Positions 5,404 to 42,666 of a stretch of DNA of 64,000 bases are shown here, piece by piece. Origin of the DNA: Planctomycetales bacterium (GTDB lineage Bacteria > Planctomycetota > Phycisphaerae > SM23-33); the NCBI GenBank assembly GCA_030612725.1, contig JAUWNJ010000013.1:1-64000 (forward strand). Reading direction: 5' to 3'. Numbering within the stretch: position 1 is the first letter of the stretch; the number at the start of each line of letters is the position of its first letter. The translations under genes were made by a program, and so were the position numbers. Below the pieces are notes generated by a model, which saw nothing but the letters and a program-made list of their open reading frames with translations, was not told where the DNA came from and did no database searches.

Positions 5404-5457
5404 AAGGAGAAGCGTTCCACGTAGTGGTACGTAGTATCGTTACGCGGTGCTACGCAC

Positions 5458-5529
5458 AGCGATCAGCGGTCGGCATTCAGCAAAAGAAAAAAAAGACTGC
5501 TGACTGCTGATAGCTGACCGCTGATTGCT
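5458..5529. repeat. Imperfect palindrome, CAGC family
   Basis: Arms 5458-5482 and 5505-5529 pair with about 4 mismatches in 25 (AGCGATCAGCGGTCGGC against AGCAATCAGCGGTCAGC). The loop is A-rich. It lies between sufC and tRNA-Gln and resembles the element upstream of rho. Confidence 0.8.
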
Positions 5530-13875: not shown

Positions 13876-13960
13876 ATGAACCACAAAGGGCACAAAGAAC
13901 ACAAAGAGAAAAAACTTAATTGCCTTGTTCTTTGTGCTCTTTGTGTACTTTGTGGTTCAT
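13876..13960. repeat. Imperfect palindrome, ACAAAG family
   Basis: Arms 13876-13908 and 13928-13960 share ATGAACCACAAAG and then CACAAAGA units; about 28 of 33 positions pair. The 19-base loop is A/T-rich. It lies between the 5' end of hisA and the 3' end of the OmpA-like gene, ending 5 bases from the latter. Confidence 0.85.
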
Positions 13961-30977: not shown

Positions 30978-30997
30978 AATTTTTCAGAAAATAATAT

Positions 30998-31102
30998 TGA
31001 ATAATGAACAGGGAATGTCGAATTTCGAAGTAAAAAAAGCAGCCCTCAAAGGTGGTTTGTTTCTTTTACTTCGAAATTCAAAATTCCTCTGTTCAATATT
31101 CA
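30998..31102. repeat. Imperfect palindrome, TTTCGAAGTAAAA family (copy 1)
   Basis: Arms 30998-31035 and 31064-31102 each end inward in AATTTCGAAGTAAAA and outward in TGAATAATGAACAG-like sequence; the loop is 28 bases. The element fills the gap between pfkB-like and nagB-like genes. A second full copy is at 39560-39670 and one arm-like remnant at about 48325-48350. Confidence 0.93.
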
Positions 31103-31119
31103 ACATTCATTTCTATCTG

Positions 31120-37796: not shown

Positions 37797-39554
37797 ATGC
37801 GCTTGCGGAATATATTTTACTATATGTGTATCGCCTTTGCGGTAATAAGCATGTCTGATGGCCGAATCGTTTTTGCCGACGATCTGGAACTGCTCAACAC
37901 GCTTTCTCTTATCAGCGACGACGTCTATGGTATCGGCGGGTTAGCGCCGGGAAGCGGTGCGCTCTACACCGGAGGCATCCTGCCCAGCGAAGTTTGGGAT
38001 GATGTGGCTGGTTATCACTGCTTCAGCCCCGCGGACGGAAGCGTAGCAGAGACTGGCTGGATAATCGGAGCACAGAATCAGACGTTCAGCCCCGCGGGTA
38101 TGGCCGGCAACGGCGGATACCTGTACCAGGCTGTGTTTTCGTCGGACCCGGAGAAAACGGGCATAGTGAAATATGCCCCCGGTAATCCGTCGATCGTATC
38201 GAGTATCTATCAACTCCAGGGTACGGAGGCGGAAAAGCGCACCAAGGGACTGACCCACGACGGAAGTTTTATCTGGCAGGCGCATTACAGTCCGGACGCG
38301 GGGCGTCTCTATGCGATTGACCCTTCCACCGGTGACCGCGTCAACACATTGTTTGTCGATCCTTACCCCTACGGATTGGCGTACGACGGGAAGTATTTCT
38401 GGGTCGCCCATCACGATCCGGTCAGCCACACCAGTTACGTCGCCCAATACGACCGTTCCGAGAACCAGATGGCGACTTATGCGATTCCGACGTCGATGTC
38501 GCCCAATGCCGCCCTCGGCGACCTTGCCGTTACAAGCGATGGTCTGTACGCGCATGTGCTCGGGACAAATAATGTAGCCCATTTCGCGCTTCCTGCGTCG
38601 GAAGGAACTCCGCCGGCGATGGGTTCTGGCGTAACGGCAGTATCAGTGGAGACCCATGCCGGTATCTATTACGACGGGAAGAACGTAACTGATTTCCAGG
38701 CGGCAGCAAACTATGGGCAACTTCCCATCGCCGCTTCTCTCGAACGCCAATCATCTGGTTTGGCGATGGATGTAGCGGGATTGGCCAGGGCGTACTACGA
38801 CGAGAACGGCGTGCATCACGTGGTCAGTTCGCTTGCCTATGGTAGCGACCACGCTTCGTACCTGGAGGCGGCGGGAGCGCTGGTGATTAATAAGAGCATC
38901 CTGATTACACCGGCTTCCTGCGGGTATGCTGCCGGTACAGCGGTCAACGCGACGGGGTCGCTGACCTTCGATGGTTTGCTTCAGGCTTTACGCGACGAAG
39001 GGGAAGGTTGGCCCGATGCGACCGGTTTGGTCTCGAGGCTCATAGCCAAGGTTACAAAGACAGGTCCCGGCGGTGAAGTTGTCTGCTTCGACGGAACCAT
39101 TTCACTTCTGGGGCAGAATAGCGAAAACTGGGTGCGAACTGTTCTGACCGGAGATGCAAACACAGCCGCTCTTCAAGAGGCATGTAATGACATCGTCATT
39201 ACCGATGGTTTTGCAAGTCTGAACTTTGATGACATCAAGGTGGGTTTCAGTATCCCTGCCATTGTCGGGCAAACCTTTTACGTCAAAATACTGTTCCACA
39301 CCAAGACCTATATCCCCGCATGGGCGGAAGGGTTGGGAGCAGAGGTTGCTTTCGGGATAGAAAGCGATATGGAAGAAGGATATTTTGTCGGTGGCGATCC
39401 GGAAGCCTACGACGATAACTACAGCGGCGACGCCTGGCTTGGTTGGCCCGGAGGATGGTATGACGTCCCGGAACCATCGACCATGATAATGCTCCTGGTA
39501 AGCGGGCTGATCACCCTGCGACGAAGAAGGAAAAGAGGAAGGAGGTCTTTCTAA
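37797..39554 (+). CDS. PEP-CTERM secreted protein with N-terminal propeller-like domain
   Basis: A 585-residue exported protein. A signal peptide (residues 1-26) precedes a domain resembling a beta-propeller (about 30-280; SVAETGWIIGAQNQTFSP, KGLTHDGSFIWQAHYSPDAG, PYGLAYDGKYFWVAHHD). Residues about 300-540 form a module shared with the PEP-CTERM protein encoded at 40142 (LARAYYDENGVHHVVS, DEGEGWPDATGLVS, VVCFDGTISLLG, EGLGAEVAFG). The tail VPEPSTMIMLL...GLITLRRRRKRGRR is a PEP-CTERM signal. AAGGAG lies 7 bases before the ATG at 37797. Possible -10 TATAAT near 37653. Function unknown. Confidence 0.78.
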   Translation: MRLRNIFYYMCIAFAVISMSDGRIVFADDLELLNTLSLISDDVYGIGGLAPGSGALYTGGILPSEVWDDVAGYHCFSPADGSVAETGWIIGAQNQTFSPAGMAGNGGYLYQAVFSSDPEKTGIVKYAPGNPSIVSSIYQLQGTEAEKRTKGLTHDGSFIWQAHYSPDAGRLYAIDPSTGDRVNTLFVDPYPYGLAYDGKYFWVAHHDPVSHTSYVAQYDRSENQMATYAIPTSMSPNAALGDLAVTSDGLYAHVLGTNNVAHFALPASEGTPPAMGSGVTAVSVETHAGIYYDGKNVTDFQAAANYGQLPIAASLERQSSGLAMDVAGLARAYYDENGVHHVVSSLAYGSDHASYLEAAGALVINKSILITPASCGYAAGTAVNATGSLTFDGLLQALRDEGEGWPDATGLVSRLIAKVTKTGPGGEVVCFDGTISLLGQNSENWVRTVLTGDANTAALQEACNDIVITDGFASLNFDDIKVGFSIPAIVGQTFYVKILFHTKTYIPAWAEGLGAEVAFGIESDMEEGYFVGGDPEAYDDNYSGDAWLGWPGGWYDVPEPSTMIMLLVSGLITLRRRRKRGRRSF

Positions 39555-39681
39555 AAGAAAATAACGAATAATGAACAAGGAATTTTGAATTTCGAAGTAA
39601 AAAAATCCTTCGAAGGTGGTCTGTTTCTTTTACTTCGAAATTCGACATTCTCTGTTCATTATTCGTTATTCATTTTAAAAG
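39552..39681. repeat. Imperfect palindrome, TTTCGAAGTAAAA family (copy 2) with possible 6-bp target duplication
   Basis: Arms 39560-39602 and 39628-39670 match over 43 bases with few mismatches (inner AATTTCGAAGTAAAA, outer AATAACGAATAATGAAC). TAAAAG occurs directly outside each arm (39552-39557 and 39676-39681) and may be a target-site duplication. The second paralogous spacer (42374-42380) lacks any such element. Confidence 0.9.
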
Positions 39682-40141
39682 GGCTTCTGTCCCTTCTCAT
39701 GAGGTGCACGAATATCCAGCCAACGTCGTCTTGTCCATTTCTCCGGCAGCGTTCAGCGATGCTATCGGGCTGGGCGCAAATCGAAACAGCGTGGTGCCCC
39801 GTTTCTCTGCCTGTCCGTTGCGAAATTATCACAATTTAGGGCTTGGAAGTTGCGCCGGTGGTGTTACAATCACTCACATCGGGGTTTGCTCGTAAGTGGT
39901 GGCTGGTCGGAAACGCTCATTCAACAGTCACTTCGGCGTCCGGCTCGATCCATTTTGCTTCTACGCATCGAGCAGGGATGCCTTGGCCTCGCCGGTGTGG
40001 AAAGAGACATATCCAAACCAAACCGGCTGAAATATCTTGGCCGAATCTCGATGACATCTGGGCCAATAATGCCTACTAAAAGCAAAACTACATGCCGCTG
40101 GGGCGTTCCACAAGGAACTCCATTATGTAAGGAGAAGTAAG
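39682..40141. other. Spacer upstream of second PEP-CTERM gene
   Basis: Together with the preceding palindrome this makes a 587-base gap between the two PEP-CTERM genes. It holds the acyP 5' fragment (39701-39755). The remaining 39756-40128 has no supported gene; short frames there show no family similarity and no ribosome-binding site. AAGGAG just before 40142 serves the next gene. Confidence 0.45.
39701..39755 (+). pseudogene. 5' fragment of acylphosphatase
   Basis: These 55 bases match 42380-42434, the leader and first 15 codons of acyP, at 54 positions. The single difference turns the start codon ATG into ATA, so the fragment cannot initiate. Homology stops abruptly at 39755. The PEP-CTERM gene at 40142 lies between the fragment and the intact acyP. 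Confidence 0.9.
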
Positions 40142-42373
40142 GTGAGAAACGTAACGATTTTATTGGCAGTAGCGGCTATGTTGGCCTTGGCAGGATCGGC
40201 ATGGGCGGATACCTATGATGTTACCTTCGACTGGAATACCGGCGACGGTAACTGGACTTCGACTGCCTCCTGGACCAAGACGAATCCGGGACCTGGGACT
40301 CCACCAGGCCCGCTGCCGTTCTACGATTATACTGAAGGCAGCGATACTTACCGTGGCCAGGCCTACATAGCCAACAACGGCGCGATCGTAACGATTAACA
40401 GCGGGACCGAGGCCGACCCGGTCGGGGCCTTCGGCGTAACATTGGGAGACTACGACCATAGGGGTGAGGCGGTCTATCTCGGGCACATCGACATGACCGC
40501 CGGGTACCTCAAGGTCGCCGGCTATCAGGGCGGCCTCAACATCAATCCGGACTGCACCTTCACCCAGTCCGGCGGGACGGTTGATCTTGGCTACTTGAAT
40601 AGCGGTTCGTACAACTGGTCCGGTGGCTTCAATACGAAGTACACTCTGGAAGGCGGTACGTTTAAGTCAGACTCCATCGCCGGCGGATACTGGCGATCCA
40701 ATTTCACCCAGACCGGCGGGGAGATGTCCGTGGGTACCTTCGGCCTCACGGATGGAGGATCGTATAACCTCTCTGGTGGTACGGCAACGGTCAACAAGCT
40801 GGAGATGGGGGCATCAACCGCTGCCGACGGCACGACGACGTTGAACATCACCAGCCCCGGCGTGGCCCCGGTTCTCAAACTCAAGACCAGCCTCCAGTTC
40901 GGAGACAGTTCAGCAGATGTGGACTACGCGGTGCTTAACGCTCCCGCGGGTCAGGTGATCAATATGGTCTGCAACCAGCCCAGGTACGCCAGCGAGGATC
41001 CTGGTGACGGTCTTGGGTATCGGTTCATTACCTCTACCACTCACTTCAGGAACTATCTCAACGATAACGATGTGGAAAACGACATGGACGACCTGAACAA
41101 CGTTACGCTGGCCTATGACATTTCCAGCGCATACGGTGCGTACTGCTGGCTGGATGTACAGGTGGGCGTTTTAGAGGTCGGCGGTTACGACAACGGCGCT
41201 GCTACGGGCGGTCTGGTCGATAACTTCGCCCTGAAAGGCCTGACGCTGACGCCGTATTTTGACGAGAAGTACCCGGAAGGTGGCGGTCGGTGGACAGGTC
41301 CGATAATCCAGTTGGTGGACGACGCGGACAACGGCAACCGGGCCAGTAACGAGTGCCTCTATGTCGAGAACCTTGCCATCGGGTCGGGTTCAGTACTCGA
41401 CCTGAACGGCCTGACGCTGTACTACCTGGAAGGCGAGGCCTCGGATGCATTCCTGGCCGATGGTCGTGTCGTCGATAACAGTGCAAGTGGTGGCGGTGAC
41501 CTCGTCCAGATTTTCGAGCCGGTGCTTGCGCATGGCGTGCTGGCAAATTCCATCAGGGTTGACAGTAGTATCAACTACGACGGTACGGTGGAGACCGGCA
41601 CACAGACGGCTGTGAACTATACACAACTTCCCGTCACTGCCACTGTGGAGCACGAGTCAGGGGGGACCAACATGCGTGTGATGGGACAGGCTCGTTCGTA
41701 CTACGACGCAGACGGGATTCACCACGTGGTGCGAGCGGCTGCTTGTGGCGATGGTCACGGCTCGGACCTGTGCGGCACCGGGACGCTTACGGACAGCAAG
41801 ACCATTCTTGTTACCTCCGGTGATTGCGGCTATCCGACCGGCACGTCGATCTGGGCGACCGGGACGCTGACACTCAACGGTCTTCTGAAGGCCTGCCGCC
41901 ATGAAGGCGAAGGTTTTCCCGACGCGACCGGTCTGGCTGCGATCTTCAATGTCCGGATTATAAGGACGGCCCCTGGGGCTGACGTAGTTTGCTTTAATGG
42001 GACTATTTCCCTTCTGGGCAACGATGACGTGGAGTGGGTCCAGGTTGTCCTGGCAGGCGATCTCAATATACTCGTTCTCCAACAGGTCGCCGCGGGTTTG
42101 GTTATCGCCGACGACTTTGCCTATCTTGAACTTGACCATGTTGACGTTGGATTTCGTATTCCTGCTGTTATTGGTCAGGCATTCGACGTTGACACGATCT
42201 TTTATGCTGAGGCTTTTGTTCCCGATGGGGCCGAGGGTTTGGGAGCGGAGGTGGTTTTTGGTGAGTCTGGTGAGTTAACAGCCAACTGCCACACGCCGGA
42301 ACCGACGACCATAGCGATGTTGCTGACCGGCGGGCTGATCACACTGCGACGAAGAAGGAAAAACCTCAACTAA
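40142..42373 (+). CDS. PEP-CTERM secreted protein with autotransporter-like repeat domain
   Basis: A 743-residue exported protein starting at GTG 40142 (TAAGGAGAAGTAAG upstream), signal peptide residues 1-22. The N-terminal half has glycine- and threonine-rich repeats (FTQSGGTVDLGYLNSGSYNW, YTLEGGTFKSDSI, FTQTGGEMSVGTFGLTDGGS) like the PEP-CTERM/autotransporter beta-helix passenger repeats. Residues about 480-705 are the module shared with the protein encoded at 37797 (QARSYYDADGIHHVV, HEGEGFPDATGL, VVCFNGTISLLG, AEGLGAEVVFG). The tail TPEPTTIAMLLTGGLITLRRRRK is a PEP-CTERM signal. Stop is 17 bases before acyP. Confidence 0.8.
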   Translation: MRNVTILLAVAAMLALAGSAWADTYDVTFDWNTGDGNWTSTASWTKTNPGPGTPPGPLPFYDYTEGSDTYRGQAYIANNGAIVTINSGTEADPVGAFGVTLGDYDHRGEAVYLGHIDMTAGYLKVAGYQGGLNINPDCTFTQSGGTVDLGYLNSGSYNWSGGFNTKYTLEGGTFKSDSIAGGYWRSNFTQTGGEMSVGTFGLTDGGSYNLSGGTATVNKLEMGASTAADGTTTLNITSPGVAPVLKLKTSLQFGDSSADVDYAVLNAPAGQVINMVCNQPRYASEDPGDGLGYRFITSTTHFRNYLNDNDVENDMDDLNNVTLAYDISSAYGAYCWLDVQVGVLEVGGYDNGAATGGLVDNFALKGLTLTPYFDEKYPEGGGRWTGPIIQLVDDADNGNRASNECLYVENLAIGSGSVLDLNGLTLYYLEGEASDAFLADGRVVDNSASGGGDLVQIFEPVLAHGVLANSIRVDSSINYDGTVETGTQTAVNYTQLPVTATVEHESGGTNMRVMGQARSYYDADGIHHVVRAAACGDGHGSDLCGTGTLTDSKTILVTSGDCGYPTGTSIWATGTLTLNGLLKACRHEGEGFPDATGLAAIFNVRIIRTAPGADVVCFNGTISLLGNDDVEWVQVVLAGDLNILVLQQVAAGLVIADDFAYLELDHVDVGFRIPAVIGQAFDVDTIFYAEAFVPDGAEGLGAEVVFGESGELTANCHTPEPTTIAMLLTGGLITLRRRRKNLN

Positions 42374-42390
42374 ACGAGCGAGGTGCACGA

Positions 42391-42666
42391 ATGTCCAGCC
42401 AACGTCGTCTTGTCCATTTCTCCGGCAGCGTTCAAGGCGTCGGTTTTCGCTACACCGCAAGACGGTTGGCTCAGCAGTTCGAGGTAACAGGGTATGTCAA
42501 AAACCTGCCCGACGGGCGAGTGGAAATCATCGCCGAAGGCACGCCCGACCAGATAGACGCATTCCTCCAGACCATCCACGAGCAAATGGGGAATTACATC
42601 CGTAGTACCGACCAGCAAATCATCATTCCGGCTGACCAATTCACCGGCTTCGAAATTCGCTTTTGA
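42391..42666 (+). CDS. acyP: Acylphosphatase
   Basis: A 91-residue enzyme hydrolysing acyl phosphates. The active-site loop GSVQGVGFRYTAR (residues 13-25, with catalytic Arg) and the Asn of GYVKNLPDGRVEI are both present, as is the C-terminal FEIRF. The length matches the family. The first 15 codons plus leader are duplicated at 39701-39755, with the upstream copy having lost its start codon. It follows the PEP-CTERM gene by 17 bases and may depend on its promoter. Confidence 0.95.
   Translation: MSSQRRLVHFSGSVQGVGFRYTARRLAQQFEVTGYVKNLPDGRVEIIAEGTPDQIDAFLQTIHEQMGNYIRSTDQQIIIPADQFTGFEIRF

What the first reader, a model, noticed from the sequence alone, without database searches (positions are those of the whole stretch)
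39552..42390. Filled and empty site pair for a palindromic element
Seen: the spacer between the first PEP-CTERM stop and the acyP fragment is about 146 bases and holds a 111-base palindrome flanked by TAAAAG on both sides. The equivalent spacer in the second copy is about 6 bases without the palindrome. The same palindrome family is present at 30998-31102. Inference: the element is mobile, perhaps a non-autonomous REP/MITE-like unit with a 6-bp target duplication.
Basis: partly seen in the sequence, partly recalled or inferred. Interest (0 to 1): 0.66.

Follow-up and report, generated by a model that had tools for sequence, protein, structure and literature searches.

The report
Mobile palindrome built of seven-base repeats
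The window carries two copies of a small DNA hairpin that has jumped around the genome about 37 times, and its arms, built of 7-base units, are the same kind that bracket the genes of the long-unexplained 'rRNA intervening sequence' protein, so it looks like a stripped-down member of a poorly understood class of bacterial mobile elements.

Summary
The palindrome is real and far beyond chance (39558-39675; second copy 30988-31112). About 37 related copies sit in the host genome, a Planctomycetota MAG. All 34 well-formed copies are intergenic, with unrelated flanks. It is mobile: one of three congeneric species lacks it at both window sites and at four other sites. The TAAAAG duplication is not above chance across copies. 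The REP/RAYT reading fails: the one RAYT whose flanks were read in full has its own, different REPs.

The arms are colinear GAANNNN heptamers. In a family of another class of the phylum (f60), the same arms bracket PF05635 genes (23S rRNA intervening-sequence protein, IVP). More generally, 65 of 88 IVP genes examined, in Planctomycetota and on plasmids of four other phyla, lie between inverted arms with period 7 (49), 8 (11) or 9 (4). Random pseudo-genes gave 0 of 100. On near-identical cyanobacterial plasmids one site is empty, IVP-filled, decayed or holds only a short palindrome. The published Coxiella 23S IVS also has tandem heptamers beside its S23p gene.

Best reading: a non-coding, MITE-like member of a heptamer-armed IVP/IVS element class. 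How it moves is inferred, not shown.

The parts
39558..39675 (+). GAA-heptad palindromic element, copy 1 (arms 39560-39605 and 39625-39670, loop 39606-39624)
   Evidence: orthologous site lacks it in congener G002 (L268)
39552..39557 (.). TAAAAG left of copy 1 (its first three bases are the PEP-CTERM 1 stop codon)
   Evidence: duplication not significant across copies
39676..39681 (.). TAAAAG right of copy 1
   Evidence: as above
30988..31112 (+). GAA-heptad palindromic element, copy 2, between two minus-strand genes
   Evidence: site filled in congener G001:C446, empty in congener G002:C131
37683..39554 (+). PEP-CTERM protein gene 1, upstream neighbour
   Evidence: ORF list
39701..39755 (+). 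55-bp duplicate of the acyP 5' end
   Evidence: D13, 98%
40142..42373 (+). PEP-CTERM protein gene 2
42391..42666 (+). intact acylphosphatase-like gene (acyP)
   Evidence: orthologue follows the PEP-CTERM gene directly in G002
5457..5529 (.). another non-coding heptad palindrome (AGCGATC-type units); same unit type as arms of an IVP gene in congener G003:C110
12826..12954 (.). another non-coding heptad palindrome (AGCGTTC-type units)
13876..13960 (.). short-period palindrome with 9-base units (CACAAAGNN)

Best explanation
The palindrome is a non-autonomous (MITE-like) member of a class of mobile elements bounded by inverted arrays of 7-base units (sometimes 8 or 9). [quoted passage not shown] The short form keeps only the arms and a small loop. 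Shown: dispersal to unrelated intergenic sites; orthologous empty sites; the same arms around IVP genes in related bacteria; the general association of IVP genes with such arms across five phyla; gene-bearing, decayed and short forms at one site on related plasmids. Inferred: the arms form a long hairpin that the IVP oligomer (acting on its own element and on short relatives in trans) uses for insertion; a host nuclease or repair pathway makes a staggered break and the element enters intergenic DNA. In transcripts the hairpin would be tolerated because RNase III can cut it, as reported for rRNA intervening sequences.
For: Copies: about 37 loci, 34 well-formed, pairwise identity median 0.73 and up to 0.95, none inside an ORF, neighbour orientations even (10/8/8/8). 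Empty sites in congeners: window 30999 (G002:C131), window 39566 (G002:C201), L073, L007, L008, and L002 where a GTAG-REP sits instead; several of the probed sites are filled in G001. Shared arms with IVP genes: IVP genes lie in GAA-heptad arms in G271, G177, G249 and G346, with the ORF starting in one arm and stopping in the other in L181 and L168. Arm identity is highest in the colinear heptad register, 0.74-0.80 against mostly 0.50-0.71 out of register. Internally deleted versions are present: L180, L182. General association: 65 of 88 IVP genes have inverted arms, best period 7 in 49, 8 in 11, 9 in 4; mispaired flanks 4 of 39 and about 5%; random pseudo-genes 0 of 100, RT and HNH genes 0 of 12. 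AGGGCGT heptads occur at about 25 loci of the own genome and only one carries an IVP gene. One plasmid site: empty at 98-99% identity in N. linckia and others, IVP-filled in Trichormus and Scytonema, decayed in Nostoc C052, short palindrome in Brasilonema. Literature: the Coxiella IVS carries tandem GACAGAT heptamers of variable number beside S23p, inside a stem cut by RNase III (PMC4990558).
Against: No IVP gene with GAA-type arms was found in the window's own genus; its IVP genes have other heptads, so the mobilising partner there is not identified. IVP has no known catalytic activity, and the class carries no recognisable transposase. Target duplications are not consistent: not significant in 24 copies, about 5 bp at the Trichormus site, 16-19 bp imperfect at L073. 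The loop of the window family does not resemble an IVP gene, and one own-genome copy instead carries an HNH gene. Arm similarity between the own family and the f60 IVP elements rests on 42 bases of repetitive sequence.
Confidence: 0.62

Rival explanations
1. REP/REPIN-like unit mobilised by a RAYT (Y1 tyrosine transposase).
For: Palindromic, intergenic, many copies; six Y1_Tnp genes in the genome; GTAG-type REPs occur beside and inside some copies.
Against: No RAYT is flanked by GAA heptads; the C18 RAYT is flanked by its own REPs with another sequence. The element is about 118-150 bp with 46-nt arms, longer than the 20-40 bp that PMC3733652 gives for REPs. GTAG-REPs insert into it as independent units.
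Confidence: 0.12
2. Retro-mobility: the IVP is an Avd-like partner of a reverse transcriptase, and the hairpin RNA is copied into DNA at new sites.
For: IVP (PF05635) resembles the DGR protein Avd (PMC10053308); several f60 genomes with GAA-arm IVP elements have reverse transcriptases.
Against: No RVT_1 gene in G000-G003 or G025, the genomes richest in the palindrome; these are drafts of 77-96% completeness.
Confidence: 0.15
3. A functional cis element (bidirectional terminator or mRNA-stabilising hairpin) spread by duplication and kept by selection.
For: Very stable hairpin, purely intergenic.
Against: No bias for convergent genes (8 of 34), species-specific presence at orthologous sites, flanks not duplicated with it.
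Confidence: 0.06
4. Homing by the endonuclease carried in some members: an HNH gene lies between the arms at G000:C9 and a PD-(D/E)XK-like ORF between GAA arms at G035:C113.
For: Both ORFs sit between complete GAA arms.
Against: Homologues of the HNH protein elsewhere are not in heptad arms; no homologue reached the threshold in G002 or G003, which have many copies; the HNH match is below Pfam's cut-off and the nuclease reading of the second ORF is by eye only, with no Pfam match.
Confidence: 0.05

Closest known systems
23S rRNA intervening sequences (IVS) with S23p/IVP ORF (Leptospira, Coxiella)
   Same: Inverted terminal repeats that form a long stem, IVP gene in gene-bearing forms, tandem heptamers reported at the Coxiella IVS end (PMC4990558), sporadic presence.
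   Different: The elements here lie between protein genes, not in rRNA; the window form has no ORF and is in high copy number.
MITEs / short mobile palindromes (Correia, ERIC, RUP and similar; from general knowledge)
   Same: About 100-150 bp, terminal inverted repeats, no ORF, many intergenic copies, empty sites.
   Different: Arms are arrays of 7-base units; no transposase with matching ends is known; no constant target duplication.
REP/REPIN elements with RAYT (PMC3733652, PMC3116915)
   Same: Palindromic, intergenic, high copy number; real GTAG-REPs share the genome.
   Different: Larger, no REP tag, not associated with RAYT genes; REPs insert into it.
Heptanucleotide repeats: Nostoc tRNA-Leu intron P6b stem (PMC4476775), TAACTGA repeats of Beggiatoaceae (PMC4679880)
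   Same: 7-base units; in P6b they build a stem-loop of variable length.
   Different: Not linked to IVP genes in the passages read; TAACTGA repeats are direct rather than inverted.

Membership tests
REP/RAYT | RAYT gene flanked by copies of the same palindrome | tested here: not met
REP/RAYT | 20-40 bp palindrome with a GTAG or CGTC tag | tested here: not met
   arms of 46 nt, no tag; definition from PMC3733652
MITE | terminal inverted repeats, no ORF, high copy number, intergenic | tested here: met
MITE | constant-length target-site duplication | tested here: not met
   24 copies, p 0.245; single cases of about 5 bp and 16-19 bp
MITE | autonomous relative sharing the ends in the same genome | tested here: inconclusive
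   No GAA-arm IVP gene in the own genus; GAA-arm IVP elements exist in f60 genomes; one own copy carries an HNH gene
IVS/IVP elements | PF05635 gene between inverted terminal repeats | tested here: not met
   The window copies have no ORF; relatives with the same arms do
IVS/IVP elements | arms of short-period (7-9) units | tested here: met
   Own arms are GAANNNN heptads; the arms of 64 of 65 IVP genes with inverted arms have best period 7-9
IVS/IVP elements | excision from RNA by RNase III | not testable with these tools
   reported for Coxiella (PMC4990558)
diversity-generating retroelement / retroelement | reverse transcriptase in the genome | tested here: not met
   no RVT_1 in G000-G003, G025

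The most novel reading that the evidence does not exclude
IVP ('four helix bundle', S23) genes across bacteria are the sole genes of a widespread class of transposable elements with heptamer-array inverted arms. The class moves without a known transposase or reverse transcriptase, spawns non-coding palindromes in high copy number, and the classical rRNA intervening sequences are its members that landed in rRNA.
Probability: 0.4. Interest if true: 0.86.

Novelty: new variant of a known kind. Interest (0 to 1): 0.74.

Why it matters
The origin and role of rRNA intervening sequences and of the very common 'four helix bundle/S23' proteins have been called unclear for over 25 years (PMC4990558). 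If intergenic IVP genes sit in dispersed, heptamer-armed elements with empty sites and short derivatives, the old suggestion that IVS are mobile elements becomes directly testable. Many unexplained heptamer repeats and palindromes in planctomycete and cyanobacterial genomes would gain a common source.

Tried and rejected
Paralogous empty site in the window: flanks do not align. Target duplication: two tests, no excess. RAYT: rejected. HNH as general mobility gene: homologues are not in arms. RT: none in the own genus. Rfam: only sub-threshold hairpin matches to microRNA and snoRNA models, taken as chance. Pfam and PADLOC gave nothing for the 189-aa ORF inside GAA arms in G035. Exact-sequence literature search for the heptads: no paper. 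The 3.7-kb stretch between GAA arms in G126:C108 (L167) holds what look like ordinary metabolic genes (glycogen phosphorylase-like and phosphatase-like ORFs, by eye), so two separate insertions or a rearrangement are likelier than cargo. IVP in phages: no match.
Full report
WHAT IS THERE. The palindrome at 39558-39675 is as described, with 46-nt arms, 89% complementary, and a 19-nt loop; a second copy lies at 30988-31112. Both fold far better than shuffles (z about -9.2 and -9.6). A search of the host genome (G000, 3.16 Mb, 65 contigs, 96% complete) finds about 37 loci. A same-family genome (G015) has a contig of the same 58,134 bp length as one of a MAG titled 'Planctomycetota bacterium', which places the host in that phylum. 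Read in register, the arms are runs of GAANNNN heptamers: GAATATT GAATATT GAACAGA GAATTTT GAATGAC GAAGTAA, then a loop, then the near-complement. Thirty-four well-formed copies have unrelated flanks; none lies inside an ORF, and neighbour orientations are even.

IS IT MOBILE? Flanks of 12 copies were joined and searched in three congeneric species. The window copy at 30999 is absent from G002:C131, where the two genes are about 5 bases apart, and present in G001:C446. The window copy at 39566 is absent from G002:C201, where the PEP-CTERM stop is followed directly by acyP (L268). In G003 a PEP-CTERM gene is followed by a different palindrome of 9-base CCGCAGAGA units and then acyP (L267). L073, L007 and L008 are also absent in one congener; L002's site holds a GTAG-REP in G003. 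At L073 the flanks carry GAAGGGGTAAGCAAATAG / GAAGGGATACGTAAATGAG, an imperfect duplication of about 18 bases where the empty site has one. Other copies show no excess of direct repeats. TAAAAG is therefore unproven.

The two PEP-CTERM/acyP spacers are 146 and 6 bases, but the sequences left after removing the palindrome do not match. Copy 2's tail (AAAACCTCAACTAA...GAGCGAGGTGCACG) matches the G003 locus instead, where it is empty of the 9-base-unit palindrome.

WHAT MOBILISES IT? Six Y1_Tnp genes exist, none with GAA heptads nearby; the RAYT at C18 is bracketed by its own REPs. No reverse transcriptase was found in G000-G003 or G025. One copy (C9:35502-36345) carries a 222-aa HNH-like ORF between its arms; homologues elsewhere are not in such arms. 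In G035:C113 a 189-aa ORF, PD-(D/E)XK-like by eye, lies between perfect GAA arms.

THE IVP LINK. There, arms 300-470 bases apart bracket an ORF that starts in one arm and ends in the other (L181, L168). The ORF is PF05635, 23S_rRNA_IVP. IVP genes in GAA arms occur in G271, G177, G249 and G346. L180 and L182 are internally deleted versions. The arms match the own family best in the colinear register.

A GENERAL RULE. All seven IVP genes of the own genome lie between inverted short-period arms, each with its own unit: AGGGACT, AGGGCGT, TATAGGC, ATTGCGG, AATGCTA, CAAATTA, TCTAATG. Over own and related genomes 33 of 39, in f60 20 of 35, on plasmids of cyanobacteria, Gemmatimonadota, Alphaproteobacteria and Bacteroidota 12 of 14: in total 65 of 88, best period 7 in 49, 8 in 11, 9 in 4. 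Identity at lag 7 is 0.63 against 0.33 in shuffled arms. Controls: mispaired flanks 4 of 39 and about 5%, random pseudo-genes 0 of 100, RT and HNH genes 0 of 12. The AGGGCGT unit occurs at about 25 loci in the own genome; only one carries an IVP gene. The window has three further short-period palindromes without genes.

A NATURAL EXPERIMENT. On related cyanobacterial plasmids one intergenic site is empty (Nostoc linckia NIES-25, Microchaete and others; 98-99% identical flanks), holds an IVP element in Trichormus variabilis and Scytonema with GTAAT on both sides, a decayed copy in Nostoc C052, and a short palindrome with similar arms in Brasilonema. Other IVP genes sit between nrdB and nrdA, cas6 and cas4, cas10 and cmr3.

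KNOWN WORK. The Coxiella 23S IVS has a 28-bp terminal stem, an S23p ORF and two to three tandem GACAGAT heptamers that vary between strains; authors have suggested IVS might be mobile (PMC4990558). IVP resembles the DGR protein Avd (PMC10053308). The own-genome IVP matches solved structures 2gsc and 2rld. No paper in the searched library was found to link IVP genes outside rRNA with heptamer arms; subscription papers and preprints were largely not searchable.

CAVEATS. Handles without names are draft genomes; the thresholds for arms were set by me after seeing the first cases, so (plasmids) is the cleaner test. Arm scores count some shared heptads between related elements. The ORF context uses a simple ORF caller. 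The mechanism of insertion is not shown.

Noticed in passing
L013, L017, L019, L020, L023, L067, L070, L072, L078, L079: A GTAG-type REP (GTGCGTAGCACCACTACGTG and longer forms) is inserted inside GAA-heptad copies, at heptad boundaries such as ATT|GAAC.
   Followed up: partly
G000:C9:35502-36345 (L080 960-1850): GAA-heptad arms enclose a 222-aa HNH-like ORF.
   Followed up: partly
L131 3490-4217 (G035:C113): Perfect GAA-heptad arms enclose a 189-aa ORF that looks like a PD-(D/E)XK nuclease by eye; no Pfam match.
   Followed up: partly
L021, L010, L005 flanks; L071, L121 flanks: GAA palindromes often sit at the centre of other palindromes (paired GTAG-REPs, or AGGGCGT heptad arms), giving nested structures.
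   Followed up: no
window 39701-39755 and 42380-42434: A 55-bp, 98% identical copy of the acyP 5' end is left upstream of the second PEP-CTERM gene.
   Followed up: no
L073, L075, L077, L079, L120: A longer-loop subfamily shares a conserved loop (ATGACACCCAAAGCGTGGATTC and similar) of unknown origin.
   Followed up: no
L276 (G001:C157): A partial homologue of the HNH protein is flanked by an unrelated 83-nt inverted repeat (GGGTGCCGTGGTCGCGG...).
   Followed up: no
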